A DNA stretch of 64,000 nucleotides from Catellatospora paridis (lineage in GTDB: Bacteria > Actinomycetota > Actinomycetes > Mycobacteriales > Micromonosporaceae): contig NZ_WBZD01000042.1 of the NCBI RefSeq assembly GCF_009720365.1, positions 1 through 64,000 of the forward strand. The letters run 5' to 3'. The position numbers and the translations under genes are program-made. How positions within the stretch are numbered: position 1 is the first letter of the stretch; each line of letters starts with the position of its first letter. Below, piece after piece: positions 29,590 to 44,084 of this stretch. Below the pieces are notes generated by a model. That model worked only from the letters and a program-made list of their open reading frames with translations. It ran no database searches and was not told where the DNA came from.

Positions 29590-29620
29590 GGGCCGCCCCG
29601 CCAGTCGGCCGGGGCGGCCC
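29590..29620 (-). terminator. Terminator hairpin between the ATPase operon and trpBA
   Basis: GGGCCGCCCCG pairs with CGGGGCGGCCC (11 bp, 9-nt loop), 19 bp past the ATPase stop codon. It separates the three-gene operon from trpBA. Confidence 0.75.
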
Positions 29621-29638: not shown

Positions 29639-32600
29639 CTATCGCTGGGCGCGCTCGACGACCTCCTCCGTCGTCAGCGGGCTCTTCGGGTGGTGGCTCA
29701 GGCACAGCGATCCGCGCATCTTGCGGAACGCGAAACCCTCCCCCGAGGCATAGAACTCGCCGGTGCCCAGCCGCGAGATGTCCGGCACGTCCGCGCCCTT
29801 GGCCCGCGCCATCTCCCGCGCCGCCTCGATCTGCGCCGGGGCGTTGAGCAGCCCGAAGAACTGCGTCGCGGCGTTGCCCGAGATCCGGTTGTGCAGGCCC
29901 TTGGGCGCCTGCGTGGCGAAGACCAGGCCCAGGCCGTACTTGCGCGCCTGCGAGGCCAGCGCCAGCGTGCTCTGCGTGCACGCGGTCATCGGCCCGGACG
30001 GGGCCAGGGTCTGCGCCTCGTCCATCACCAGCAGCCCGCCCAGCGGCCGGTCGCCGGCCGGGTTCTTCTTGATCCAGGCGAACAGCGCCAGTTGCAACTG
30101 GTTGACGAAGCCCTGCCGCTGCTGCTCCGACGGCAGCCCGACCAGGCTGATCACCGACACTCGGGCGCGCTTGCCGGGCGCGGGTGTCAGCAGCAGACCC
30201 GGGTCGGCCGGCGCGCCGCCGCCACCGAACAGGGCGTCGGTCACCATCGCCGCGGTCAGGTTCTGCGACAGCTCGAACGCGATCTTCTCGGCGTCCTCCA
30301 GCTGGCTCACCCCGTCCGGCAGGGAGCTGAGCACCCCGACGAATGCCCGGATGCCCTCGCCGCCGCTGCGGGCGAAGTGCCGCAGCGCCTCGTTGAGCAC
30401 CGCCTGCCCGCGCAGCGCCTTCGCGGTGGTGCCGTCCACCTTCGCCCGCGGCGCGAGGCTGGCCACCGCGGCGTCGATGGCCGCGCCGAACTCGTCGGCG
30501 TCGTCGCGGATGGTCGCGAACTCCGGCAGCGGCTGGAAGCTCAGCGGACGCCCCGACTCCCGCCGCGGCGTCCACACCACCACGTCGGTGTGCGCCAGGT
30601 ACTCCGCCGAGCGCGCCGCGTCGCCGTCCGACCAGCCCGCGGGCGGCTCGGGCCAGGCGTCGCCGAGCCGGGCCAGGTCGTTGTTGGGATCCAGCACGAT
30701 CGTGGACACGCCGGCCAGCGCGCACTCCTCGATCAGCCTCCGGATCAGCACGGTCTTGCCGGACCCGGAACCGGCGAAGATCGCCGTGTGCTTGCGCAAC
30801 GACTCCAGATCCAGCCGGACCGGCTCCCCGTCGTCGAACCCGCTGCCCAGGGTGATCGTGTGCACCGAATCAGCAGCTCCCGGCTGCGCCGCGGCATCCC
30901 GCTCGACCTCCACGTCGTCCGCGTCGCGCACGGGCGTCAGGTGGACCGCACGCCCCCGGCGGCGTTCAGCGGTCTCCCCGGCCGCCGCTATCTCGGCCAC
31001 GATCTCGCCGAGCACGGTACGCAGCAGCATCGTGCGGCCCGCCGGGCGGCGCGCGGCCAGCCAGCCGGCCAGCCCGGAGTCCCGCTCGGCCAGCAACTGC
31101 CGCAGCGCGGCGAAGGTGCGCAGGTCGTCCTCGCCGATGCTGAGGCGCGTGCCGCCGTCCAGCGCGAACGCCTTCAGGGCCTCCTGCGTCTTGGCGCCCT
31201 TGTTCCAGTCGGCGTTGCGCAGCAGGAACAGCTTGCGCTTGCCGATGCCCCGGCTCAGGCCCGCGCTGGTACGGGCCGCCTGCAGGCGCGACAGCGCGGC
31301 GATCGCGTTGGTGTGCGCGATCGCCCGGAACGACCAGTGCTGCTCGTCCTCGGTGGCCTCATCCAGGCTGCGGCGCAGCCGGGCGTGCAGCGGCACCTTG
31401 CCACCCTGCGGCGGATCGACCCGAAACGCCCGCCCGGCCTCGCCCAGCTCCTCGATCCAGGCGGACAGCCCCGCGGTGAGCAGCGCGGGCATCTCGCCGT
31501 CCTCGGTGGCACCGGCCAGCGCCGCGGCGACGTCGACGGACTCGCGCAGCTCCGCGAAGCGCCGGTCCAGCTTGTCGTCCAGCACCTCGTCGGCGACCAG
31601 CACCGCGACCGGGTTCTCGGGCTCGGTGAAGCCCGCCAGCTCGCGCACCGCGCCCTCGCGCAGGCAGGCCTGCACGTGGTCGTTGATCCGGTTGATGAGC
31701 AGCCGCGGGGTGAACACCGTCGCCTCGGCGAACGCCGACTCCCGCACCGGCCACGTGGCATACGGCGGGATGAAGCCGTGCTCGGCGAAGCGCACCGCGA
31801 AACGCTTGGCGACGATGTCGCGGGCGATGTCGGCGCTGGCGATGCCCTTGAGCGTGACCGGCTCGCGGAACCGGTCGGCGACCGACTTGGTGGCCCGGGT
31901 ACGGATCAGCGTCCACGTCGACGGCAGGCAGGCCAGCACGGTCAGCGTGCGCCGGGTGGTCTGGCGCAGCGCCATCAGCCCGTCCGCGATCTGGTTGATC
32001 AGCTGGGTCTGCTCGGCGCTCTCCTGGCCCAGCTCCTTGCCCGCGGCCGTGTTCCACAGCTGGGCGACCAGCGTGTCGATCTGGTCGATGGCCACCACCG
32101 TCGGACCGGTCAGCGCCAGCAGCTGCGACATCTCCTGCATGACCAGCTGCGGCGGCTTCTGCACCGGGTGGATGCCCCACTGCTGCCGCTCCCCCGGCTC
32201 CATCTCCTGCATCGACTGCAGGTACGTATAGCCGACGTCCTGCGCGGCCGGATCATCGGCCGCCCCGAGCAGCGCGAGCGCCCGCGCGGTGTGGTGGCAG
32301 GCCATGCCGACGGGGCCGTCGAAGCGCCGCAGCGCGGCGGCGAACTCGTCGAGGTGGGCCCGGGTCAGCGGGGCACGGCCGGTGACCGCCGACGCGGTCG
32401 CCTCGGGGACCTCGGCCGCGGTGCACAGCCGGTCCAGGAACACCGACAGCTGGCTGCCCTGGCCGAGGTGGTCGCGTTGCAGGCCGTTGACCACGGCCAG
32501 GGTGGCGCTGTGCCAGAACGCCGCCCCGTCCAGCAACCCGACGAGGAAGAAGTAGCCGCCGCCGCGCTGGGTCTGCTCGCGGACCCAGCCCAGCAGGTGC

Positions 32601-32812
32601 GTCTTGCCCGATCCCGGCTGCCCCTGCATGGCGATGCCGATGGGGCTGCCGTCGGGGCTGCGCCGGGCATCGTCGAGGCCGTGCAGGATGTGCCGCACCA
32701 CGTCGTCGTGCAGGGCTTCGACGTGGAAGGGCGAGCCGCGCCAGACGTCGTCGGGCACCGGGGCGACGTCGAACCGCAGGTTCGACAGCGCCCGGCGCTC
32801 GTCGGGATTCAC
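29639..32812 (-). CDS. Dual ATPase: N-terminal AAA/ORC-like module plus C-terminal HerA/FtsK-like module
   Basis: 1057 aa. The N-terminal module has Walker A GQPGSGKT (64-71) and Walker B TVVAIDQID (~239), followed by helical and winged-helix-like sequence as in ORC/STAND-type ATPases. After a middle region of ~300 residues, a second module begins with DLESLRKHTAIFAGSGSGKT (Walker A ~682-689), then STIVLDPNNDLARLG, Walker B LLVMDEAQTL (~929) and the HerA/VirB4-type LGLVFATQAPKGLHNRIS. That combination predicts a DNA-translocating or DNA-remodelling machine with a separate switch ATPase. It is the last gene of a three-gene operon and overlaps the previous stop by 4 nt. I cannot name a characterised family for the full length. 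Confidence 0.88.
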   Translation of the reverse strand: MNPDERRALSNLRFDVAPVPDDVWRGSPFHVEALHDDVVRHILHGLDDARRSPDGSPIGIAMQGQPGSGKTHLLGWVREQTQRGGGYFFLVGLLDGAAFWHSATLAVVNGLQRDHLGQGSQLSVFLDRLCTAAEVPEATASAVTGRAPLTRAHLDEFAAALRRFDGPVGMACHHTARALALLGAADDPAAQDVGYTYLQSMQEMEPGERQQWGIHPVQKPPQLVMQEMSQLLALTGPTVVAIDQIDTLVAQLWNTAAGKELGQESAEQTQLINQIADGLMALRQTTRRTLTVLACLPSTWTLIRTRATKSVADRFREPVTLKGIASADIARDIVAKRFAVRFAEHGFIPPYATWPVRESAFAEATVFTPRLLINRINDHVQACLREGAVRELAGFTEPENPVAVLVADEVLDDKLDRRFAELRESVDVAAALAGATEDGEMPALLTAGLSAWIEELGEAGRAFRVDPPQGGKVPLHARLRRSLDEATEDEQHWSFRAIAHTNAIAALSRLQAARTSAGLSRGIGKRKLFLLRNADWNKGAKTQEALKAFALDGGTRLSIGEDDLRTFAALRQLLAERDSGLAGWLAARRPAGRTMLLRTVLGEIVAEIAAAGETAERRRGRAVHLTPVRDADDVEVERDAAAQPGAADSVHTITLGSGFDDGEPVRLDLESLRKHTAIFAGSGSGKTVLIRRLIEECALAGVSTIVLDPNNDLARLGDAWPEPPAGWSDGDAARSAEYLAHTDVVVWTPRRESGRPLSFQPLPEFATIRDDADEFGAAIDAAVASLAPRAKVDGTTAKALRGQAVLNEALRHFARSGGEGIRAFVGVLSSLPDGVSQLEDAEKIAFELSQNLTAAMVTDALFGGGGAPADPGLLLTPAPGKRARVSVISLVGLPSEQQRQGFVNQLQLALFAWIKKNPAGDRPLGGLLVMDEAQTLAPSGPMTACTQSTLALASQARKYGLGLVFATQAPKGLHNRISGNAATQFFGLLNAPAQIEAAREMARAKGADVPDISRLGTGEFYASGEGFAFRKMRGSLCLSHHPKSPLTTEEVVERAQR

Positions 32813-33471
32813 TCGGCCTCGATCGACAGCAGGTGCTTGTCCTCACCACCGATGTGGATCGCGGCGGCGCGGTCCTCGTCGGTCAGGGTCTTCTGGTTGT
32901 CCTCGGGCACCAGCACGATGGTGCGCGCCACCGCCATCTTCATCAGCGCCGCGTCGACCTCCGCCGCCGACGCCCCGGACAGCTCCCGGCGCAGGTCGGT
33001 GAGGCTGACCCAGGCCTGCGGCTGATCAGCGAGCTTGTCGTACGCGGTCCGCACCCGCTTCTCCAGCCCGCGCTTGACCACCGGCTTGATCTTGGTCACC
33101 GGCTGCGGGGCGGGCGGCGGGGTGCTGGCGGTGAACAGGTCGGGCAGGCTCAGCTCGGCCCGGCGCAGGTAGCGGTCGACCGCGCCGAGCAGCGCGTGCA
33201 GCGCCGGGTAGGCCGGGCCCGCACCCTTGACGAACTCCGCGTCCAGCTCCCGCTTGCACTGCGCCCAGCCCTCGTCGGTCAGCTCGTGCACCAGCGCGCC
33301 CTTGGCGCCCTTGCGCTTGGTGGCGAACCCGTTCTCGACCAGGGCTCGGCTGTCCGCACCCTGGATCGAGAAGCCGTCATAGCGCTCGCGCAGCTCGGTG
33401 TTGGAGACTTCACGGGCCTCCGACATGAGCAGCAGCAGGCACGCCTTCTCCGAGGGCTTGAGCTTGGTCAT
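32809..33471 (-). CDS. Winged-helix-like protein of the ATPase/nuclease operon
   Basis: 220 aa from ATG 33471 (AAGGAGA upstream), overlapping both neighbours by ATGA. The first ~85 residues look like a winged helix: KLKPSEKACLLLLMSEAREVSNTELRERY, ADSRALVENGFATKRKGAKGALVHELTDEGW. A Pro-rich linker (TPPPAPQPV) leads to a second helical domain (AYDKLADQPQAWVSLTDLRREL, AEVDAALMKMAVARTIVLVPEDNQKTLTDEDR) that also resembles a winged helix. There are no catalytic motifs. It may bind DNA or bridge the ATPase and the nuclease candidate. Confidence 0.85.
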   Translation of the reverse strand: MTKLKPSEKACLLLLMSEAREVSNTELRERYDGFSIQGADSRALVENGFATKRKGAKGALVHELTDEGWAQCKRELDAEFVKGAGPAYPALHALLGAVDRYLRRAELSLPDLFTASTPPPAPQPVTKIKPVVKRGLEKRVRTAYDKLADQPQAWVSLTDLRRELSGASAAEVDAALMKMAVARTIVLVPEDNQKTLTDEDRAAAIHIGGEDKHLLSIEAE

Positions 33472-34634
33472 TTGTTCTCCTTGTGCGCGTCGGTGCGTCG
33501 GGATCGGAGGTACTGCTCCAGGTGTGCCAGCACCTGGCCGAGTTCGGTGAGGACCTGGCGGTTGGTGAACCGCAGCACGGCGAAGCCGTCGAGCTGCAGC
33601 AGCACGTCGCGCCGTCGGTCGTGGGCGAACTTGTGGGGTCCGCGGTGGTCGTCGCCGTCGATCTCGACCGCGCACCGCTCGCCGGGCCAGACCAGGTCGA
33701 TGATGTAGTGCGGGCGGGCCGCGTACCGGCGGTTCCAGACCCGGCCCGCGGCCCAGGCCGCCTGCACCAGCGCCGCCTCCAGCGCGGTCTCGGCGGCGCT
33801 GTCCGCCCGCGGGCGACCCTCGACCGGCGGATACGTCAGCGTCGCCGGGGCGGGCCCGATGGCCGGACCGTCGCCTGCCGCGACGTCGCCTGCCGTGTCG
33901 CCGCCCGACGTGGCGACCAGCTCCACGACATGCTCGGGCAGCCGCACCGGGTACGCCGTGACGCGTCCCGCCGCGGGCAGGTCGGCTCCGGCCAGCCACA
34001 CCGTGAAGCCGCCGTGCGCGGCCAGCCACTCCCCCGCGGCGGCCAGTGCCCGCTGCCGCCCCGGGTCCAGCCCGTGGGGCACGTCGACCAGCAGCGCCGC
34101 GCCCGCCCGCCGGTAGCTCTCGGCGACGACCCGGGCCAGCCCGGCCGCGCGCACCTCGGGGGCGAAGCGGACCGCGATCGGCCTTCGGCGTGCTCCGCCA
34201 TCCGCCGACTGCCGCTCGACACCGGGCCGGGCCGCCTCCCGCTGGGCGGCGGACTCGGAACCCGGCACCGGGGACCCTTGCCGGTCGCGCAGTGCCTGCT
34301 CGGCGAGGTCGGCGAGGAACGGGCCGAAGTGGCGGGTGGTGGCGGCCAGCTCCAGCGCCAGGGCGCGCACCGCGGGCACGCCCGCCCCACCCGGCCCTTC
34401 GAGGTGCTCGGCCGCGGGCAGCCAGGCCGGGAACAGCCGCAGCGCGGCCGCCTCCAGCTCGTCCAGGGCGCAGGCGACGACCTCGGCGGCGGTCGCCGCC
34501 AGCGGGGGGCGGAAGGTCACCACCGCGGGTGCGTCGGCGGGCAGCGGGGTCAGCGCGAGCTCGATCACCTCCGTGGACGCGCCCCGCAGGCGGGTGACCC
34601 GGCCTGCCGGCGTATGCGTCCAATGTGGTGTCAT
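33468..34634 (-). CDS. Protein with C-terminal DUF559/Vsr-like PD-(D/E)xK endonuclease domain
   Basis: 388 aa from ATG 34634. The N-terminal ~280 residues are Ala-rich and unrecognised, with a central part (YRRAGAALLVDVPHGLDPGRQRALA) that may be a Rossmann-like fold. The C-terminal ~90 residues look like the DUF559/very-short-patch-repair-like nuclease fold: ETALEAALVQAAW, YIIDLVWPGERCAVEIDGDDH, then DRRRDVLLQLDGFAVLRFTNRQVL. Asp and Glu-Ile-Asp fit the metal-binding PD-(D/E)xK positions. It is the first gene of the operon with the winged-helix and dual-ATPase genes, so it is the probable effector or strand-cutting component. Nuclease activity is inference. Confidence 0.82.
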   Translation of the reverse strand: MTPHWTHTPAGRVTRLRGASTEVIELALTPLPADAPAVVTFRPPLAATAAEVVACALDELEAAALRLFPAWLPAAEHLEGPGGAGVPAVRALALELAATTRHFGPFLADLAEQALRDRQGSPVPGSESAAQREAARPGVERQSADGGARRRPIAVRFAPEVRAAGLARVVAESYRRAGAALLVDVPHGLDPGRQRALAAAGEWLAAHGGFTVWLAGADLPAAGRVTAYPVRLPEHVVELVATSGGDTAGDVAAGDGPAIGPAPATLTYPPVEGRPRADSAAETALEAALVQAAWAAGRVWNRRYAARPHYIIDLVWPGERCAVEIDGDDHRGPHKFAHDRRRDVLLQLDGFAVLRFTNRQVLTELGQVLAHLEQYLRSRRTDAHKENK

Positions 34635-34749: not shown

Positions 34750-35640
34750 CTATCCCGAACCGGTGGACAGCTGTCCGATGAGCGCGCGCGACCACGGCTG
34801 AGCCATCGCGGGCTCACCGGTCATCGCGCGAACCAGCGCCCGCCGCGCCCGCCCCGAACGACCTAGTTCGACCAGCGCGAACGCCTCGGCCAGGGCGAGC
34901 CGGGTCGACTCGTCCCGCTGCGGGCCGGGCGCCTGCGCGAGCCAGTGCGGCGGCTGGAACGTCCGGGTCAGCTTTACCTGACTGTCGCCGAGGTAGGACC
35001 ACACCCACGCGTCGAGCGACACGTTGCGCACCGATCGCGCGGGCAGCTCGCGGGTCCAGTCGGCGTGCTGCTGCCAGCGCCAGGTCTTCGGACTGGTGGC
35101 GCGGCGCGAGGTGACCCCGACGAACCGCAGCTTCTGCCGGATCACCCCCCACGGCTCCCGCTCGCGCTCGATCCACGACCGCAGCAGCGCGTAGAGCTCA
35201 CCGAAGGTGTCCCCGCCGTGGACGACGTCGACGAAGGCCACCGGCCGGGCACGCCGGGCGAGCGCGTGCGGGCTGAGGCCCAGCTGGTCGAGGATCAGGC
35301 GCGCCTGCGCCAGCTGCGGTCCGCTGATCCGCCTCGGCCGGAACCGGCGCCCGTCCCACCGGCCGCCGGCGTTGAAGGACAGCGGCAACCGGTGCGTGCG
35401 GTCCCGCCAGGAGGTGCCCGCCAGCGCTCCGCCCAGCAGGTCGTACATCGAGTCCAGGGACCGGCCGACGAAGATCAGGTCGGCGTCGCCGCTGCGGGCG
35501 ATGACCCGGCCCGTGCAGGCGAGCAGGTCGTCGGCATACCACAGCGGCGGCGGCTCGACCCCGTCGAGCAGTCGCCCGATCTGGTCCGGGGTCACCACGT
35601 CCCAGCGGAAGGGCAGGTTCGGCGCATGCACGGCGGCCAT
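34750..35640 (-). CDS. Unrecognised protein with phosphoribosyltransferase-like motif
   Basis: 296 aa from ATG 35640. I do not recognise a named family. DADLIFVGRSLDSMYDLLGGAL and, later, PVAFVDVVHGGDTFGELYALL resemble respectively the first glycine-rich strand and the PRPP-binding loop (hydrophobics, acidic residues, G-G-x-T) of type I phosphoribosyltransferases. The C-terminal part is rich in Trp, Arg and Leu without clear motifs. It has no signal peptide or membrane helix. It precedes the nuclease/ATPase operon on the same strand by 115 bp with a hairpin between, so a functional link is possible but not shown. Confidence 0.7.
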   Translation of the reverse strand: MAAVHAPNLPFRWDVVTPDQIGRLLDGVEPPPLWYADDLLACTGRVIARSGDADLIFVGRSLDSMYDLLGGALAGTSWRDRTHRLPLSFNAGGRWDGRRFRPRRISGPQLAQARLILDQLGLSPHALARRARPVAFVDVVHGGDTFGELYALLRSWIEREREPWGVIRQKLRFVGVTSRRATSPKTWRWQQHADWTRELPARSVRNVSLDAWVWSYLGDSQVKLTRTFQPPHWLAQAPGPQRDESTRLALAEAFALVELGRSGRARRALVRAMTGEPAMAQPWSRALIGQLSTGSG

Positions 35641-35742
35641 GTTAGGCGCGGCGGCCACGCGCGGCACCCCGGTTTCCGCCCAGCCCGATCTCCCGAGGAT
35701 TACCCTGAAATCGGACGAAATTCTACGGTGGAGATGTCCGGT

Positions 35743-38550
35743 ATGAATCCGGTCCATGGGCTGTACGGTCGGCGCGCCGAGTGCGACATGCTCGACCGGC
35801 TGCTGGAGGATGTCCACGAGGGCAGGCACGCGGTCCTGGTGGTACGCGGTGAGCCCGGCGAGGGCAAGACCGCACTGCTGGACTATGTGGCCGATAAAGC
35901 AGCGAATAGTCGAATCATCCGGATATCAGGCGTGCAGCCGGAGATGGAATTGGCCTACGCGGGCCTGCATCAGCTCTGCATGTCGATGCTCGACCACATC
36001 GACGGCCTGCCGGTGCCGCAGCGTGACGCGCTGCGCAGCGCGTTCGGGCTCGCCGAGGGGTCTGCCCCGGATCGTTTCCTGGTGGGGCTGGCGGCCTTGA
36101 CCCTGCTGTCCGAAGTGGCGGACACCCGGACACTCGTCTGCCTCGTCGACGACTTCCAGTGGCTGGACCGGGCCTCCGCGCAGGCCCTGGCCTTCGTCGC
36201 GCGACGGCTGATGGCCGACCCGATCGCCCTGGTGTTCGTGGTGCGTACCACCGACGGCGAACCTGAGCCCGATGACGGTGAGCTGGTCGGCCTGCCGGAA
36301 CTGACCCTGACGGGGCTCGATGATCGCGACGCGCGCTCGCTGCTGGCGTCGGCGATCCCCGGACCGCTGGACGAGCGCGTCCGCGAGCGGATCCTGGAGG
36401 AGTCCCGCGGCAACCCACTGGCCCTGCTGGAGTTGCCGACCGACCTCACTTTGCCGGAACTGGCCGGCGGATTCGGCTTGCCCACGAGTCGGTCGCCGAC
36501 CAGCCGGACCAGCCGGATCGAGCGGTGCTATCTGCGCCGCCTAGGCACACTGCCCCCGCAGACCAGGCAGTTGCTGCTGGTGGCCGCCGCTGACCCGGTG
36601 GGTGATCCGGCCCTGCTGTGGCGTGCCGCAGCCGGCCTGGGCCTTACCACCGATGCGGCGGCGCCGGCGGAGGCGGCCAGGTTGCTCACGGTGGGCACCC
36701 GGGTGCGTTTCGCCCACCCGCTCGTGCGCTCCACCGTCTACCGGTCCGCGTCGCCGGACGAGCGGCAACGGGTGCACCTCGCGCTGGCCGAGGCGACCGA
36801 TCGCCAGGTGGACCCGGACCGGTACGCCTGGCACCTCGCGGCCGCGACGGCGAGTCCGGACGAATCGGTGGCCGAGGACCTGGAGCGCTCAGCCGCGCGG
36901 GCGCAGTCCCGCGGCGGCGCCGCGGCCGCCGCGGCGTTCCTGCGGCGGGCCGCCGAACTCACGCCCGACCTCAGCCTGCGGGGCGGGCGGGCCGTGACCG
37001 CCGCCCAGGCGGCGTTCACGGCCGGAGCGTTCGACATGGCCTACGAGATGCTCTCCACAGCACAGATGAGTCCACTCGACCGGCTCCAGCAGGCGCGGCT
37101 GGAACGCCTGCGCGCGCAGTTGGCGTTCGCCCTCAGCCGTGGCAGTGACGCGCCGGGCCTGCTGCTGCACGCCGCCCAGCGGCTGACCCCGCTCGGCCTC
37201 CCGCTGGCTCGGGAGACCTATCTGGAGGCGCTGATGGCGGCGATCTTCGCCGGTGCCGGGCGGCTGGAACCCGAGTTCGGGGCGCGTGCGGTGGCCGAGG
37301 CTGCTCGCTCGGCACCCGCCGAACCCGGCTCCCTGGATCCCGTGGACCTCCTGCTCGACGGACTGTCGGCACAGTTCACCGAGGGATACGCCGCGGCGGC
37401 GCCCACCCTGCGGCGGGCGCTGGAGGCCCACTGGACCAGCACCGAGGGCCTCACCTGGGTCTGCCTGACCGCATCGCTGGTCGCGGCGGAGTTGTGGGAT
37501 AACGCGGCATGGCTGGACCTGCTCGACACCCAGGTCAAGGCGGCCCGTACGGCGGGGACGCTGAACCGGCTGCCGCTGGCGCTGGACTATCTCGGCAGCT
37601 ACTACGTCCAGGCGGGAGACTTCACCGCCGCGGCGGCATTGATCGAGGAGGCCGCCGCATTCGACGCCGCCGTCCGGGTGGCACCCCCGCCCTACACGCC
37701 GACCATCCTGGCCGCTTGGCAGGGCGACCAGCCCCGCACCGCGAAACTGACCCAGGACGGCATCCAGGACGCATTCCCCCGGGGGGAGGGCAGCGCTCTC
37801 GTGCTGACGGAGTACGCCGGCGCAGTGCTGGACAACGGGCTGGCCCGCTACTCCTCCGCGCTGGGCGCCGCACAGCGGGCGACCGCCGGTGACAATCTGG
37901 TGGCCCGGTCGTGGACGCTGCCGGAACTGGTCGAGGCCGCCGCCCGGGCGGAGCGGCCGGGCATCGCGGGGCAGGCGCTGGAGGAGCTCACCGAGCGGAC
38001 GCAGGCCAGCGGCACGCAGTGGGCGCTGGGCACCGAGGCCCGTTCGCGAGCGCTGCTGAGCGAGGGCGCGGCGGCCGAGGAGCTCTACCGGGAGGCGATC
38101 CACCGGCTGACGGCCTGCCACATGAACGCGCACCTGGCCCGGGCGCATCTGGTGTACGGGGAATGGCTGCGCCGCGAGAACCGCCGGGCGGACGCCCGCG
38201 AGCACCTGCGCCGCGCCCACGACATGCTCACGCTCATGGGCGCCGAGGCGTTCGGCGAGCGCGCCCGCAACGAACTGCTGGCGACCGGTGAGACGGTCCG
38301 CAGGCGCACCGCGGATTCGGCGCTCGATCTGACGCCGCAGGAGGCGCTGATCGCGTCACTGGCCCGGGACGGGCGCACCAACACCGAGATCGGGGCCGAG
38401 CTGTTCATCAGCCCCCGTACGGTCGAGTGGCACCTGCGCAAGGTGTACACCAAGCTGGCCATCAACTCGCGCCGGGAGCTGCGCGACGCGACGATCGACG
38501 CCGGGCTCGACACGGTGTGGGTGCCTTCGCAAGCCGGTTCACCCGGCTGA
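35743..38550 (+). CDS. LuxR family regulator of the LAL type (AAA ATPase plus HTH)
   Basis: 935 aa from ATG 35743, GGTGGAG ending 9 nt upstream; an ATG at 35734 is too close to it. The N-terminal AAA domain has YGRRAECDMLDRLL, Walker A GEPGEGKTALLD (36-47) and Walker B VCLVDDFQWLD (~130), followed by GNPLALLELP. A long helical TPR-like region spans the middle. The C-terminal LuxR HTH is LTPQEALIASLARDGRTNTEIGAELFISPRTVEWHLRKVYTKL. These large ATP-binding regulators control secondary metabolism or carbon use. It diverges from the PRTase-like gene; its target is not apparent. Confidence 0.93.
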   Translation: MNPVHGLYGRRAECDMLDRLLEDVHEGRHAVLVVRGEPGEGKTALLDYVADKAANSRIIRISGVQPEMELAYAGLHQLCMSMLDHIDGLPVPQRDALRSAFGLAEGSAPDRFLVGLAALTLLSEVADTRTLVCLVDDFQWLDRASAQALAFVARRLMADPIALVFVVRTTDGEPEPDDGELVGLPELTLTGLDDRDARSLLASAIPGPLDERVRERILEESRGNPLALLELPTDLTLPELAGGFGLPTSRSPTSRTSRIERCYLRRLGTLPPQTRQLLLVAAADPVGDPALLWRAAAGLGLTTDAAAPAEAARLLTVGTRVRFAHPLVRSTVYRSASPDERQRVHLALAEATDRQVDPDRYAWHLAAATASPDESVAEDLERSAARAQSRGGAAAAAAFLRRAAELTPDLSLRGGRAVTAAQAAFTAGAFDMAYEMLSTAQMSPLDRLQQARLERLRAQLAFALSRGSDAPGLLLHAAQRLTPLGLPLARETYLEALMAAIFAGAGRLEPEFGARAVAEAARSAPAEPGSLDPVDLLLDGLSAQFTEGYAAAAPTLRRALEAHWTSTEGLTWVCLTASLVAAELWDNAAWLDLLDTQVKAARTAGTLNRLPLALDYLGSYYVQAGDFTAAAALIEEAAAFDAAVRVAPPPYTPTILAAWQGDQPRTAKLTQDGIQDAFPRGEGSALVLTEYAGAVLDNGLARYSSALGAAQRATAGDNLVARSWTLPELVEAAARAERPGIAGQALEELTERTQASGTQWALGTEARSRALLSEGAAAEELYREAIHRLTACHMNAHLARAHLVYGEWLRRENRRADAREHLRRAHDMLTLMGAEAFGERARNELLATGETVRRRTADSALDLTPQEALIASLARDGRTNTEIGAELFISPRTVEWHLRKVYTKLAINSRRELRDATIDAGLDTVWVPSQAGSPG

Positions 38551-38766
38551 CAGGGTCACCGGGCGCCCCTGGAATCGGACACCCGGGCCGAATCCGGGAC
38601 GGGGCCCGGTCCCGGCCCGGGTACCCGGGAAACCGACCAGTGCCCCTCGACCGGGGTTGCGCACCGGCTCGACCGCACTGCCCGGGACGCGATAGTTGGG
38701 CATGTCCTCGCCGAGGAGGACGTCCGGCGGAACCCGCCGAGCTTGCCCGACAGGAGCCTGCACGTG

Positions 38767-39621
38767 ATGACCTACGACCCGATGACCTCCTTCCCCAGCA
38801 CCGCCGATGCCTACACGCTGGGACCGCCTGCCGGCGATGGACCGGCCGACCCGGCCCGCGTGGCCGGCCGCACCGTCGCCCAGGCCGTCGCCCACGGCGA
38901 GTTGCGGCTGCTCTACCAGCCCATCGTGCGGGTCGCCGATCGCGCGGTGGTCGCGGTCGAGGCCCTGGTGCGCTGGCAGCACCCGACGCTGGGCCTGATC
39001 AGCCCCGACCGGTTCCTGCCCGCCGCCGAGCACGGCGGTCACCTGCCGCTGCTCGACCGCTGGGTGCTGGATCGCGCCTGCCGCGACATGGTCGAACTCG
39101 ACGCCGCGCTGGGTGAGGCGGTGCCCGCCCACGTCAACGTCAACCTGTCCGCGCCGACCCTGGCGACCGACTTCACCGAACTGGTCACCGCCGCCCTGCG
39201 CCGCGCCGGGCTGGCCGCGCGGCGGCTGCGGCTGGAGCTGTCCGAGGGCGCCGACCTGAAGACGCTCATCGACGCCCGGCCGCGGCTGGAGAAACTGATC
39301 GAGCGCGGCATCGGGGTGGCGCTCGACGACATGGGCGCGGGCGCGACCGACCTGCGCTACCTGTCCCGCCTGGCCATCCAGGGCATCAAGATAGACAAGG
39401 AGTTCGTGGCGGGCATGCTGCACAACCCGCGTGATCACGCCATCGTCCGGATGCTCGCCGAACTGGCCCGGAGCCTCGGCCTGCACGTCACCGCCGAAGG
39501 CGTCGAGACCGGCGACCAGTTCGCCGCCCTGGCCCGGTTGGGCGTGTCCTATGCGCAGGGCTACCACCTCGCCATGCCGCTCACCCTCGCCGCGCTGACC
39601 GGCACTCTGCTCGCCGCGTGA
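38767..39621 (+). CDS. EAL domain protein (cyclic-di-GMP phosphodiesterase or degenerate relative)
   Basis: 284 aa from ATG 38767; GTG 38764 just before it is equally placed relative to AGGAG. It contains the EAL signature as VEALVRWQHP, then NVNLSAPTL, LELSEGAD, VALDDMGAGATDL (in place of DDFGTG), IKIDKEFV and TAEGVET. Most metal- and substrate-binding residues (E of EAL, N, the DD pair, K, E of EGVE) are retained, while the loop-6 motif is changed (DDMGAG), which can weaken activity. There is no GGDEF or sensor domain and no membrane segment, so it is a soluble stand-alone EAL protein. Confidence 0.9.
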   Translation: MTYDPMTSFPSTADAYTLGPPAGDGPADPARVAGRTVAQAVAHGELRLLYQPIVRVADRAVVAVEALVRWQHPTLGLISPDRFLPAAEHGGHLPLLDRWVLDRACRDMVELDAALGEAVPAHVNVNLSAPTLATDFTELVTAALRRAGLAARRLRLELSEGADLKTLIDARPRLEKLIERGIGVALDDMGAGATDLRYLSRLAIQGIKIDKEFVAGMLHNPRDHAIVRMLAELARSLGLHVTAEGVETGDQFAALARLGVSYAQGYHLAMPLTLAALTGTLLAA

Positions 39622-39635
39622 ACGGCGGTCCCGCC

Positions 39636-39663
39636 GGCGGCGGGGTGCCGACCGCCCGCCGCC
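39636..39663. terminator. Bidirectional hairpin between convergent genes
   Basis: GGCGGCGGG pairs with CCCGCCGCC (9 bp, 10-nt loop), between the EAL gene and the convergent large gene. Confidence 0.6.
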
Positions 39664-39685
39664 GCACGCCGTGGCCGCTCCTGCC

Positions 39686-42600
39686 TCACTCCTCGAAGTA
39701 GTGCACGGCCGACGGTCGCGGCGCGTCCGGCAGCTGCCGCAGCACGGCCGTCACCCCGGCGAGCAGTTCGAGCTGCTCGGGCACCTGGATCGACACCCAT
39801 TCCGGGGCCAGTCCGGCGACGACCGGCAGCAGCCCGTGCGCGACGGGCACCCACTGCTCGTACACCCGGCCGGCCTTCTCGCTGCGGTAGGTGGCCGCCC
39901 GGTAGGCGCTGCCGTCCGGGAAGGACAGCTCCAGCCACAGCCCTTCGGCGAACCGGGCCGCCGCGGACCCGGCGGGCGCGTCGTGGGCGAGGTGCACCCG
40001 CAGCCGGTACGGCGAGACCGGGAAGAACTGCCCGGTGCCGAAGATTCCCAGGTGGTATCGGTCGACCTTGGCGGAGCGGGCGATCGGGTCGAGATCGTGG
40101 GCGTCGATCACGTAGCCCTCGTCGGGGCAGAACGGCGTCACCGCCAGGTATTCCAGCACCCGGGTGAAGGCGTCGATCTCCACGTCGAAGGTCACCGGCC
40201 CCTCGGCGGTGGCCACGGCGACCCGCTGCGACAGGTAGCGGGTGCCCTTGCCGAAGAAGCCGTACTGGAAGCGCACCAGCGGGAAGGCTCGCCGAGCGCG
40301 GCAGCGGTGACGGGATGCCCGGCGGCGCGCCGGGCCTCGGGCCGGTAGGAGCCGATCGCGTCCTCGCGCGCGGGCAGCCGTTCGGCCAGCTCCGCCGCCT
40401 GGGCGCGCAGCTCCCGCAACCGTGGTGCGAACTGCTGCCGCCGGGTCTCGTACAGATCCTTCGGCCGCCGTTCGAAGCGGCTGCGGCGCTCGCCGGTGTG
40501 CCGGCGGATGGTCTCGAAGTCGGCCGGGTCGGGCAGCACCGCGCCCATGGCCGGGGCGACCCGCCGCGCGATCTCCTCGCTTACGTACAGGTAGCGGTCG
40601 TCGTCGTGGGTGCTGTCCGGTTTGGACCAGCGGAACCAGCGCCGGTGGGCGTGGTCGAGGGCCGACCGGGTGGGCCAGTCGACCATCGTGTACCACTTGG
40701 CATCGTCATCGGCCGCGGCGTACAACCGGATCCGTTCGGGTGCGAGCCGGGCCGCCTTCGCGCTCCAGCCCCGGCCGCTGGCGGTCACCCTGACCAGCTG
40801 GTAGCCGCGCTCGGTGAGCTGTGCGTAGACCCGCTCGGCGGTGAACGGCTCGGTGTCGAACACCAGCGCGATCTCCTCGCCGAACGACACCCGCGCCACG
40901 TACCGGTAGCCGGTGAGCTGCTCGACCCGCTCGCTGAGCCGCGTGCCCGGCGACCGGTGCGGCGCGGCGGGCCGGCGCGGGGGCGGCTGCTCCTCCGGGG
41001 CCGCCTGCTCCAGGCAGAGCAGCTGCCGTCCGGTGGTCAGCAGGTAGAGCCGGCGGTCGGCGGCGGTCATCGCCCGGATGCCGAATCCTTCGTCGCCGAG
41101 GTCCGCGGGGTAGCGGTCCGGGCGGGCGCCGCCGTCGCCGAGCAGGTCCTCCAGCCGCACCTCCCAGCACAGCATGCCGTCGGCGGCCACGGCTCGCACG
41201 GCGGTGCCGGCGGCGTGGTAGGTCAGCGCACCGGCCCGGCACTCGGCCTGCACGACGAGACCGTCGTGCGAGCGCAGCGGCGGCGGCGCGGGAACCGGGC
41301 CGGGCGACGGACGGCCGGAGACCTCGGCGTCGGTGATGACGTCGACCTGGTACGGCAGGTCGAACGACTCGGCGTGCACGGTGCGGTCGGCGTACCCGAG
41401 GAGACGGCCGTGGCCGCGGCGGCGGGTGCGGCCGCTGTCCGGGTCGTACGGCTGGTGGCCGCGCTGGCCGTCGCGCCAGACGAGCAGCCCGTGCCCGTTG
41501 ACGATGATGCCGGGCGGCGCGTCGGCGGGGTTGCCGTGCTCGGTGTGCGCGACCTGCCAGCGCAGCACGGGCACGCCGCTGATCGGCGTGAGGTCGGCGT
41601 CGCCGGCCGGCCAGCGTACGGTCGCGCCGATCGGCCACCGGCAGCCGCTGTCGGCCGTGGCCTGCCAGGCGGCGGCGAGCCAGTCGGCGGGCAGGCCGTG
41701 CCGCGCCCCGTGCAGCCCGAGCGCCCGCAGGCCTTCGGCCAGGTCCGGCTCGGCCGCGAACGCGCCCTCCCAGGGGTTGCCCAGCAGCCGCCCGTTGACC
41801 TCGCGCACCGCGGCGGCGGCCCGGCTCGCGGCGCGACCGCACAGCACCGCCGCGTAGGCCAGCAGGTCGCCGTCGTCCTCCTGCGGATGCACGTGGCACG
41901 CCGACACGACCCGGTCCGGCTCGACCGGCTCCGGCAGGGCTGCCGCGACCTCCCGGGCGAGCCTGCCGCGGTGGGTGCGGTAGGGGTCGGCCTTGTCCGC
42001 GGCCGTGGTCAGCACCCGCGACAGGTAGCGGGCCAACTGCTCGGCCGACGCCGGGTAGAGGCGGCCGAGCAGGTCGTCGGACGGCGGCGCGGTCGGTTGC
42101 CGCGGGGCGAGCACACCGGCCGCACCGAGACTGCGGTGACCGCCGGAGCGGGGCGTCGGTGGACCGCCCAGGTCGGTCAGCAGCGCGGCGCGGTCGTGCT
42201 GGAGATGCCGGGCGGCCACGGCCAGCACGGTGTCGTCGTCGATGCCCGGGAACAGGTAGCCCAGGGCCACCCCGCCCGCCCACTGCGCGTCGACCAGCAG
42301 CCGTGCGGTCGTGAGCAGCCCGGCATCGGTCTCGGCGTCGGCCGCGTGCGCGGCGGCCGTGACGGCCCGGCACCGCGCCAGCGCCAGATGTGCCCAGTCC
42401 AGCGCGGGCCGGCTGTCGGTGGGGCGGCTGCGCCGGGTGACCGGCGGTTCCGGCACGGGCGGGGCCGCTCCCTCCGCCACGGTCCGGGCGGCCGGGTCGG
42501 CCAGGGCGCGCAGCTCCTGCATGCGCCCCCAGAGCGCGTCCGCGCGCGCGACGAGGGCGGCGCAGCGGCCGGACCGCTGCACCGGGGTGAGTGCCGCGAC

Positions 42601-43338
42601 CGCCTGGGCCAGCGCCTGCTCCCAGCCGGACTCGGCCGCGGGCGTGGGACCGGCGGGCCGGATGTCCGCCGGCGGCGGGCCGGGGTCGACGTCGAGCACG
42701 GGCGGCTGCCCGCCGCGGCGCAGCGCGCGGATCACGGCCAGCGGCCAGGCCCGGGCGTTGGTGAGCCGCCGGTGCAGGGCGGGGTCGCAGCCGGCGGCCG
42801 CGTACAGCTCAGCGGTGACCTCCCGCCAGCCGACGCCGGTCGTGTACCGGTCGATGACCTGCTCCTGCAGGCCTTTCGCGCCCGCGCCGAGCCGGTGCTG
42901 CAGGGCGAGCCGCCGCTGCGGGACGGTCCACCCCGCCGTGTCGGCGTGTTCGCGCAGCCTGCTCGCCGACGCGGCCAGCCGCAGCGCGTGGCCGCGCAGG
43001 CGCAGCAGGGCGATCGTCTCCCGGCCGGGCGGTCCGGCGGCCCGCAGGATGACCGGTTCGGCCGGGTCGGTGCCCGTGTACCAGGTACGCAGCGCATCGG
43101 CGGCCACCCGCAGCGGGTGGTCCGGGGCGAGCACCGTGCCCAGGCGGAGCCGGTCGGCGCGTTCGGCGGCCGGGTGCAGTTCGGCGACGGTGTGCCGCAG
43201 CCAGCGGTCGAACTGCGCGGGGTCGAGTTCCAGCAGCAGGTTCGCCAGGTCGTCGGCGCCGGGCTCGGGCGCCCCGGGGTAGGGCGTGGCCGCCCGTTCG
43301 GCGATCAGCCGGTCGACGCCTGCCCACTCCCCCGCCAT
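39686..43338 (-). pseudogene. Very large unrecognised protein gene interrupted by a one-base frameshift
   Basis: Reading starts at ATG 43338 (MAGEWAGVDRLIAER) and is open for ~1017 codons to about 40288. Coding character then continues in the next frame (FPLVRFQYGFFGKGTRYL) to a stop at 39686, adding ~199 codons. The two frames join if one base is missing near 40286. The product would be ~1217 aa. The N-terminal two thirds are Ala/Arg-rich and helical; the region around residues 640-800 has WxVxLED and LYLLTTGRQLLCLE stretches like beta-propeller blades. I recognise no family. It may be a sequencing error, a recent mutation or a real pseudogene; coding quality on both sides argues that the full gene was functional recently. 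Confidence 0.75.
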
Positions 43339-43379
43339 CGCGGCAGTGTAACGATCACGCGCCAGGGCCGGCGCGGTCG

Positions 43380-44084
43380 TCAGGAGCCGTAGACCTCTTC
43401 GAGTTCGAGTTCGAAGTCGACGCCGTGCTTCTTGAACCAGGTGATCGGGTCGTGCGCGACGCCGTCGACGTGGATCTCCAGGTGCAGGTGGGTTCCGTAC
43501 GAGTAGCCGGTGTTGCCCGTCATGCCGATGACGTCACCGGCCTGGACCCGGTCGCCCGGCTTGACCAGCACGCGGCTGGAGTGCCCGTACAGCGTCTGCA
43601 GGCCGTGGCCGTGGTCGACGATGATCGAGTTGCCGTAGCCGCCGTTCCAGCCGGCCTGAACCACCACCCCGCCGCGCACCGCCATGTACGGCGTGCCCTC
43701 GGGCAGCCCGGCCAGGTCGAGTCCGCGGTGCGGCCGCCCCCAGCGGATGCCGTAGCGGGAGCTCAGCGTGTAGTCGTGCAGCGGCAGCACCCACGCGTCG
43801 GGGGCCTCCTGGCTGATCGACGTGCTGAGCTGGCGGTCGCCGCGGTTGGGGCGGGCGGCGATGTCAGCGCGGGCCGCCTCGCTGAACGCCGCCATGTGGT
43901 CGCCGGGGGCGTCGGCCTTGGCGTCGGGCACGACGGCCGCGGCGCCGAAGGCCACGATGCCCGCACCCGCGGCGGCGGTGGCCAGCACCGTGGCGTACCT
44001 GCTGCGCGATGGCGTGCCCGCGCGGCGCCGCCCGCAGTAGCGGTCCGCCTCCCTGACCAGCTCTGGCCGATAGCGCACGACCAC
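43380..44084 (-). CDS. M23 family metallopeptidase (LytM-like)
   Basis: 234 aa from GTG 44084. A basic N-terminus precedes one hydrophobic segment (TVLATAAAGAGIVAFGAAAVV) that acts as signal anchor or signal peptide. The C-terminal ~120 residues are an M23 domain: SSRYGIRWGRPHRGLDLAG (first His and Asp ligands), NSIIVDHGHGLQTLYGH, and GTHLHLEIHVDG (HxH). It should cut peptide cross-links in peptidoglycan outside the membrane. The gene is monocistronic with a long, partly AT-rich leader. Confidence 0.93.
   Translation of the reverse strand: MVVRYRPELVREADRYCGRRRAGTPSRSRYATVLATAAAGAGIVAFGAAAVVPDAKADAPGDHMAAFSEAARADIAARPNRGDRQLSTSISQEAPDAWVLPLHDYTLSSRYGIRWGRPHRGLDLAGLPEGTPYMAVRGGVVVQAGWNGGYGNSIIVDHGHGLQTLYGHSSRVLVKPGDRVQAGDVIGMTGNTGYSYGTHLHLEIHVDGVAHDPITWFKKHGVDFELELEEVYGS

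What the first reader, a model, noticed from the sequence alone, without database searches (positions are those of the whole stretch)
29639..34634. Uncharacterised three-gene system: nuclease candidate, winged-helix protein and dual AAA + HerA/FtsK ATPase
Seen directly: three genes joined by 4-nt ATGA overlaps and closed by a hairpin terminator at 29590-29620. They encode a DUF559/Vsr-like PD-(D/E)xK candidate, a two-part winged-helix-like protein and a 1057-aa protein with two independent Walker A/B sets, the second of HerA/VirB4 type. From known families: HerA-type ATPases paired with nucleases recur in anti-phage systems, and ORC/STAND-like ATPases often act as sensors. Fusing both ATPases in one chain, with this nuclease and a DNA-binding-like bridge, matches no system I can name. 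I infer a DNA-processing, defence or plasmid-exclusion complex.
Basis: partly seen in the sequence, partly recalled or inferred. Interest (0 to 1): 0.75.

Follow-up and report, generated by a model that had tools for sequence, protein, structure and literature searches.

The report
Predicted DNA-capture defence gene trio
Three neighbouring genes in a soil actinomycete look like a self-contained machine that grips foreign DNA, threads it through a motor and cuts it; machines of this general kind were already predicted in print, but in some relatives the cutting part appears to be exchanged for a trypsin-like or another ATP-binding protein.

Summary
Three overlapping minus-strand genes (window 29639-34634, Catellatospora) encode a DUF559/PD-(D/E)xK nuclease, a winged-helix protein and a 1057-aa protein with an ORC/STAND-type AAA+ part and a HerA motor. 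The trio is a real unit: of 99 distinct relatives, 98 have the winged-helix homologue, 86 the nuclease, 85 both. It is patchy (159 of 250 sampled family genomes, 6 of 296 phylum genomes, own genome included), under purifying selection among close species, and a deletion scar in 2 of 11 sampled genus genomes. "Matches no system" is too strong: Rakesh, Aravind and Krishnan (PMC10853773) predicted "HerA/FtsK capture" systems coupling Orc/Cdc6 ATPases, REases, wHTH and HerA; I read this as a fused actinobacterial version. Apparently new: in two separate clades the nuclease is replaced, by a P-loop protein with weak TPR matches (6 loci), or by a divergent trypsin-like/WD40 gene (5 loci, 4 with a Trypco1 gene; one has lost the protease residues). 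Against: no more known defence families nearby than farther off, no experiment, and the inactive-REase insert, second winged helix and ORC assignment rest on topology or weak profile hits. No antiphage activity is shown.

The parts
33468..34634 (-). Gene 1: 388-aa protein, N-terminal region without known family, C-terminal DUF559 / Vsr-like PD-(D/E)xK nuclease domain (about residues 279-376)
   Evidence: Pfam DUF559 1.6e-12; family profile hits PDB 3hrl 'Endonuclease-Like Protein' 3.7e-14; S279, E282, D313, E324, D326, G327, H330, D339, R342, D343, R355 invariant in 35 of 35 aligned homologues including Desulfobacterium, Paludisphaera and Methylobacterium
32809..33471 (-). Gene 2: 220-aa winged-helix protein (one clear, one probable unit), predicted DNA-binding/recognition subunit
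29639..32812 (-). Gene 3: 1057-aa ORC/STAND-type AAA+ part (about 32-400), alpha/beta insert (about 437-557, candidate inactive REase), helical linker, HerA motor (about 650-1057)
29590..29620 (-). Hairpin after the operon, between it and trpB; possible terminator without T-run
   Evidence: sequence; fold, z -3.47

Best explanation
The cassette encodes a counter-invader DNA restriction complex of the HerA/FtsK 'capture' kind. Proposed steps: (1) the winged-helix protein and the ORC/STAND-like AAA+ part recognise or load on invading DNA (inferred); (2) the HerA part forms a ring and pumps the DNA using ATP (inferred from fold and intact Walker A/B; the fold is a model that matches solved HerA); (3) the DUF559 nuclease bound to the ring cuts the captured DNA (family and conserved acidic residues shown; activity and binding inferred). 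There is no methyltransferase in the three genes, so self/non-self discrimination would rest on DNA structure or state (for example replicating, transferring or unpackaged DNA), or the complex is normally held inactive and acts as a switch. The core pair (winged helix + AAA-HerA) is the constant part and the effector is the exchangeable part.
For: Conserved unit: of 99 distinct loci, 98 have gene 2 (95 of 98 within 30 nt of gene 3), 86 gene 1; of the 85 with both, 84 have gene 1 within 30 nt of gene 2. Invariant motifs in nuclease, AAA and HerA parts. HerA fold close to solved antiphage HerA complexes and DndH. Patchy: 159 of 250 family genomes at E <= 1e-30, 6 of 296 phylum genomes at 1e-60 (own genome counted in both), 9 of the 11 same-genus genomes shown. 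Two relatives keep the site but lost gene 3 and the nuclease core, with different junctions in gene 1, while gene 2 stays open. In two clades the nuclease is replaced, in one by trypsin-like/WD40 proteins, with Trypco1 in 4 of 5 loci; Trypco1 and trypsin-like peptidases are described in conflict systems in PMC7159879 (passages read). The same domain set is predicted to be counter-invader in PMC10853773.
Against: No experiment. No excess of PADLOC families within 2.5 kb of the cassette over genes 6-11 kb away. No hit in 50,697 phage records and only 3 of 72,556 plasmid records (one of these is an 11.9-Mb record, one carries ribosomal protein operons), so mobility is indirect. In four close Catellatospora species it is kept beside trpB. 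Two of 99 loci have neither nuclease nor a recognised replacement (L098, whose gene 3 is interrupted, and L103). Gene 2 is not the fastest-evolving part among close species: gene 1 is.
Confidence: 0.6

Rival explanations
1. Sensor-switch (abortive) reading: the core pair senses invader DNA or proteins and, instead of feeding DNA through a ring to the nuclease, switches on whichever effector is attached (nuclease, P-loop/TPR-like protein, or trypsin-like protein), harming the cell to stop spread.
For: Effector exchange on a constant core in two clades, each one group in the tree; NACHT matches in 37 of 39 and nSTAND_NTPase5 in 34 of 39 homologues at E <= 0.01; the clade-C partner has a Trypsin_2 match in 3 of 5 loci and WD40 repeats in the 4 of 5 scanned. 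Loss of nuclease core and gene 3 with gene 2 kept in two relatives would fit a costly effector.
Against: The invariant HerA motor motifs argue that DNA pumping itself matters; no toxicity data; one of the five trypsin-like domains has lost its catalytic His and Ser.
Confidence: 0.25
2. Housekeeping DNA repair or end resection like HerA-NurA, or chromosome segregation.
For: HerA of Sulfolobus and the Thermococcus HerA-NurA complex are among the best structural matches; kept at one chromosomal site within one species group.
Against: Not found in 290 of 296 sampled phylum genomes and 91 of 250 family genomes at the thresholds used; effector exchange; scars; DUF559 instead of NurA.
Confidence: 0.07
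3. A module serving a mobile element (stabilisation, exclusion of rival elements, or transfer) rather than the host.
For: In Mycobacteriales it sits in a variable interval inside the S10-spc ribosomal cluster, between rplN and rpsQ in 23 of 78 long loci; the HerA part also resembles VirB4 and TrwB.
Against: No neighbour cluster occurs in more than 17 of 78 loci, though the clusters were not annotated for mobile-element genes; rare on plasmid records, not found in phage records.
Confidence: 0.08

Closest known systems
HerA/FtsK capture systems, Orc/CDC6-coupled class (Rakesh, Aravind, Krishnan 2024, PMC10853773; section 22 and passages read)
   Same: ORC/STAND-type AAA+ part, HerA/FtsK motor, REase-fold nuclease, wHTH, candidate inactive REase after the AAA core, arrangements in one or several polypeptides; predicted counter-invader role
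   Different: ATPase, insert and HerA are fused in one chain; the nuclease is DUF559, whereas the main text names AbiJ-type as one of two REase families and does not contain the word DUF559; effector-exchanged clades. Its supplement could not be opened, so this very family may be listed there
BREX-related capture (BRC) systems (Rakesh and Krishnan 2026, PMC12839542; outline, abstract and passages read)
   Same: HerA/FtsK with ORC/Cdc6 ATPase and wHTH
   Different: BRC has seven components including PglZ, DUF6079, DUF4007, a STAND NTPase, GNAT and TGT; none matched in the three cassette proteins
DndFGH (DndH HerA domain)
   Different: No DndF or DndG family in the listing; PADLOC DndH model matches only 5 of 39 homologues at 0.001
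SIR2-HerA / DUF4297-HerA (solved antiphage complexes)
   Different: Effector is DUF559, not SIR2 or DUF4297; HerA is fused to an AAA+ part here
MADS (PADLOC mad8)
   Same: Best PADLOC score of the HerA part: mad8 5.1e-21, matched by 39 of 39 homologues
   Different: No other MADS component matched in the cassette proteins
Trypco1 / trypsin-like conflict systems (PMC7159879, passages read)
   Same: Clade-C loci carry a Trypco1 gene and a trypsin-like protein
   Different: There the pair accompanies VMAP ternary systems; here it faces a winged-helix + AAA-HerA pair

Membership tests
HerA/FtsK capture, Orc/CDC6 class | HerA/FtsK motor domain | tested here: met
HerA/FtsK capture, Orc/CDC6 class | Orc/CDC6-family AAA+ ATPase | tested here: inconclusive
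   AAA_16 38 of 39, NACHT 37 of 39, nSTAND_NTPase5 34 of 39, but ORC-CDC6-like only 3 of 39 at 0.01, and the place of the match was shown only for the window protein; a profile of residues 1-400 has no PDB hit better than E = 0.01
HerA/FtsK capture, Orc/CDC6 class | Inactive REase inserted between AAA core and C-terminal wHTH | tested here: inconclusive
   Model shows helix-strand-strand-strand-helix-strand-helix-strand at 437-557 and the strands carry no conserved D...ExK; the domain could not be searched alone, so the fold is my reading of topology
HerA/FtsK capture, Orc/CDC6 class | C-terminal wHTH of the ORC protein | tested here: inconclusive
   Three helices 561-619 after the insert but no wing strands in the model
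HerA/FtsK capture, Orc/CDC6 class | Active REase-fold nuclease | tested here: met
   DUF559 with invariant E282/D313/E324/D326/H330 in 35 of 35; activity not tested
[quoted passage not shown]
   First wHTH matched, second by topology only. Mean column identity 38-39% against 47-49% for gene 3 over wide alignments, but among close species gene 2 is more conserved than gene 3 in 2 of 4 comparisons. Relation to DndG/SspB not tested
BRC (BREX-related capture) | PglZ, DUF6079, DUF4007 present | tested here: not met
   No such match in the three cassette proteins
DndFGH | DndF, DndG and about 1700-aa DndH | tested here: not met
   No DndF/DndG hit; gene 3 is 1057 aa
MADS | Eight-gene set (recalled; no MADS paper was opened) | tested here: not met
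   Only mad8 matched among the cassette proteins
SIR2-HerA / DUF4297-HerA | SIR2 or DUF4297 partner | tested here: not met
   Partner is DUF559
HerA-NurA | NurA partner nuclease | tested here: not met
   No NurA hit; DUF559 instead
Any antiphage system | Protection shown by experiment | not testable with these tools
   needs phage or plasmid challenge

The most novel reading that the evidence does not exclude
The winged-helix + AAA-HerA pair is a general invader-DNA sensing core that has been re-coupled from its ancestral nuclease to protease-like and P-loop effectors: a DNA-pumping ATPase that triggers a trypsin-like/WD40 protein (with Trypco1), that is, a HerA machine signalling to proteolysis instead of cutting DNA.
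Probability: 0.3. Interest if true: 0.75.

Novelty: new variant of a known kind. Interest (0 to 1): 0.5.

Why it matters
In the papers I read, HerA-Orc capture systems are predictions from sequence. This cassette is compact (three genes, about 5 kb), found in 159 of 250 sampled genomes of its family, and has close relatives with natural deletions, so it would make the prediction directly testable. If the effector exchange is functional, it separates sensing/pumping from the harmful act and links a DNA motor to protease-type bacterial immunity.

Tried and rejected
Neighbourhood of known defence genes: not supported. Near genes (within 2.5 kb) and farther genes (6-11 kb) gave the same number of PADLOC protein-family matches at 1e-10: 19 among 150 and 19 among 145 (several families can match one protein). 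The sets were cluster representatives of 90-900 aa, 150 of 177 near clusters and 145 of 145 far clusters, without the plasmid loci L108-L110; at the ribosomal sites only genes inside the rplN-rpsQ interval were used; the far set comes from the same loci, so it is a weak control.

The winged-helix family profile against PDB gave calmodulin hits (1.5e-5 and weaker); rejected as spurious because the model is wHTH and wHTH chains (hsRosR, 1.3e-4) match residues 4-82. Foldseek for gene 2 gave no hit under 0.001 (best a MukBEF chain, 9gm9_D, 4.4e-3). A Zeta_toxin match (2.5e-5, above cut-off, residues 52-87) covers only the P-loop and was not followed.

Two alternatives to the exchange reading that I could not exclude: that the divergent trypsin-like/WD40 gene is merely a neighbour, and that clade-C nucleases lie elsewhere in those genomes (not searched).

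Paper searches without a match to this exact trio: (listings). PMC10853773 was read in section 22 and passages; PMC12839542 in outline, abstract and passages; PMC7159879, PMC8195603 and PMC10907252 in passages. One search (ribosomal-site insertions) gave a listing only.

Phylum searches centred on Planctomycetota and Desulfobacterota did not run, so other phyla are a lower bound.
Full report
What is there. The window lies in a Catellatospora genome (nearest named relatives; own genome 8.97 Mb). Three minus-strand genes overlap by four bases each (ATGA, then GTGA) and are followed by a strong hairpin without a T-run. trpB-like and trpA genes follow downstream (PALP 8.4e-51, Trp_syntA 4.5e-68).

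It is a unit. From 110 loci I dropped the distant second HerA of the own genome (L002), the window itself (L001) and nine double fetches, leaving 99. Gene 2 is found in 98 of 99 (the 99th, L109, has an unrecognised 227-residue frame in its place); 95 of 98 lie within 30 nt of gene 3. Gene 1 is found in 86 of 99; 85 have both, and in 84 of these gene 1 lies within 30 nt of gene 2. The three exceptions next to gene 3 are L070, where the best gene-2 match belongs to another copy upstream, and L098 and L105, where gene 3 is not one open frame.

It is patchy and dispensable. Gene 3 is in 159 of 250 sampled family genomes at E <= 1e-30 (several matches in some, of which some are pieces of one gene), in 6 of 296 sampled phylum genomes at 1e-60, the own genome counted in both, and in 9 of the 11 same-genus genomes shown. 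Four close species keep it beside trpB, with dN/dS 0.13-0.41; two more distant species give 0.39-0.63. In the two sampled Catellatospora without it (G071, G051) the same site carries remains: gene 3 is gone except for 29 residues in G071, gene 1 has lost its middle including D313, E324 and H330 with different junctions in the two, and gene 2 is open and 73-75% identical to the window's. Part of this loss may be one shared event. In C. tritici and strain KI3 the cassette is not beside trpBA, although the window's 21-23 kb block still lies some kilobases away. In Mycobacteriales it sits inside the S10-spc ribosomal cluster, between rplN and rpsQ in 23 of 78 loci held at more than 15 kb; 31 of 78 show at least one of the two markers.

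The effector is exchanged. Six loci (L045-L049, L084; two families) have in place of the nuclease a 615-743-aa protein with a P-loop read by eye (G-[GA]-S-S-[TA]-G-K-T) and at best weak Pfam matches: TPR in five of six, nSTAND3 at 0.04-0.08 in two, none in L049. Five loci (L090 and L021/L025/L028/L030, extended as L133-L136) have instead a divergent gene; in the four Pfam-scanned whole it is 1322-1350 aa with WD40 repeats (1.1e-57 to 3.7e-85), and the L090 gene is 55-60% identical to the L134 one. Its N-terminus matches Trypsin_2 above cut-off in 3 of 5 (L133 2e-9, L136 3.7e-11, L090 1.1e-8) and nothing in L134 and L135. His, Asp and the Ser of GxSG align in four; L135 lacks His and Ser, so it is probably inactive there (triad recalled). 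A Trypco1 gene lies next to it in four of five, again not in L135. Trypco1 is rare in these genomes: 1, 3, 2 and 3 copies in G023, G157, G181 and G205; in G023 its only copy lies within 1 kb of the cassette, in G205 none does, and G003 is probably a sixth case, by Trypco1 only. In a quick tree of 97 gene-3 rows (L003, L098, L105 left out; SH-aLRT only) each exchanged set is a single starred group within the Actinomycetota, and the rows on the other side of the midpoint root (Desulfobacterium, Paludisphaera, Methylobacterium) carry the nuclease; so 'nuclease first' is likely rather than shown. Trypco1 was named in PMC7159879 for genes that co-occur with trypsin-like peptidases in conflict systems (passages read).

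What is known. PMC10853773 (section 22 and passages read) predicts counter-invader 'HerA/FtsK capture' systems with Orc/CDC6 ATPase, inactive REase insert, active REase, HerA/FtsK and wHTH. PMC12839542 (abstract, outline, passages) repeats this and adds BRC systems. The present trio fits the class in its motor and nuclease, probably in its wHTH protein, and plausibly but not conclusively in its ATPase type and insert. The word trypsin does not occur in the main text of PMC10853773, and the one HerA mention in PMC7159879 is in its references; so I found no print of the trypsin-like exchange, within.

Mechanism. Most likely: recognition by winged helices and the AAA+ part, capture and pumping by a HerA ring, cutting by DUF559. 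Recognition, ring formation, pumping and cutting are all inferred; domains, invariant motifs, linkage, selection, loss and exchange of neighbours are shown. The exchange makes a sensor-switch reading a serious rival.

Results against. No local excess of known defence families, no phage carriage found, few plasmid records, one fixed site in the nearest species, two of 99 loci with no recognised effector, one inactive-looking protease among five, and no functional data.

Noticed in passing
L108:6928-16991 (Tsukamurella tyrosinosolvens record), and 22 further loci: The cassette interrupts the S10-spc ribosomal protein cluster between rplN and rpsQ, with variable cargo (in L108 VapB/PIN genes and a DEAD/DEAH helicase); an apparent insertion hotspot. 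The Tsukamurella record is labelled a plasmid yet carries the ribosomal cluster.
   Followed up: partly
window 34763-43380: The stretch upstream of the cassette (LuxR-type regulator, EAL-domain protein, an unassigned 1048-aa ORF) is missing in large part in close relatives L033, L038 and L059, and its 39.6-43.4 kb part in L032: a variable region beside the cassette.
   Followed up: partly
window 39686-40696 and 40192-43338 (-): Two overlapping ORFs in different frames, the larger (1048 aa) without any Pfam match; possibly one long gene with a frame change.
   Followed up: no
L128:18003-18662 and L130:9196-9855: In two Catellatospora genomes that lost gene 3 and the nuclease core, the winged-helix gene alone stays open (dN/dS 0.33 between them), as if it had a use of its own.
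   Followed up: partly
L135:4890-8903: The one clade-C locus without a Trypco1 neighbour is also the one whose trypsin-like domain lacks the catalytic His and Ser: one case only, but it fits Trypco1 going with an active protease.
   Followed up: partly
L080 (record titled Kitasatospora arboriphila): Its gene 3 is nearly identical to that of Williamsia muralis (L076) in the tree and the rpsQ marker lies beside it: recent transfer or a mislabelled genome.
   Followed up: no
L070:610-2366 and L070:5798-9579: Rhodococcus sp. IEGM 1381 holds what look like two cassettes or parts of them in tandem (two winged-helix genes, one nuclease gene).
   Followed up: no
window 34750-35829 (-): A 359-aa ORF without Pfam match ends 115 nt upstream of gene 1 on the same strand.
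   Followed up: no
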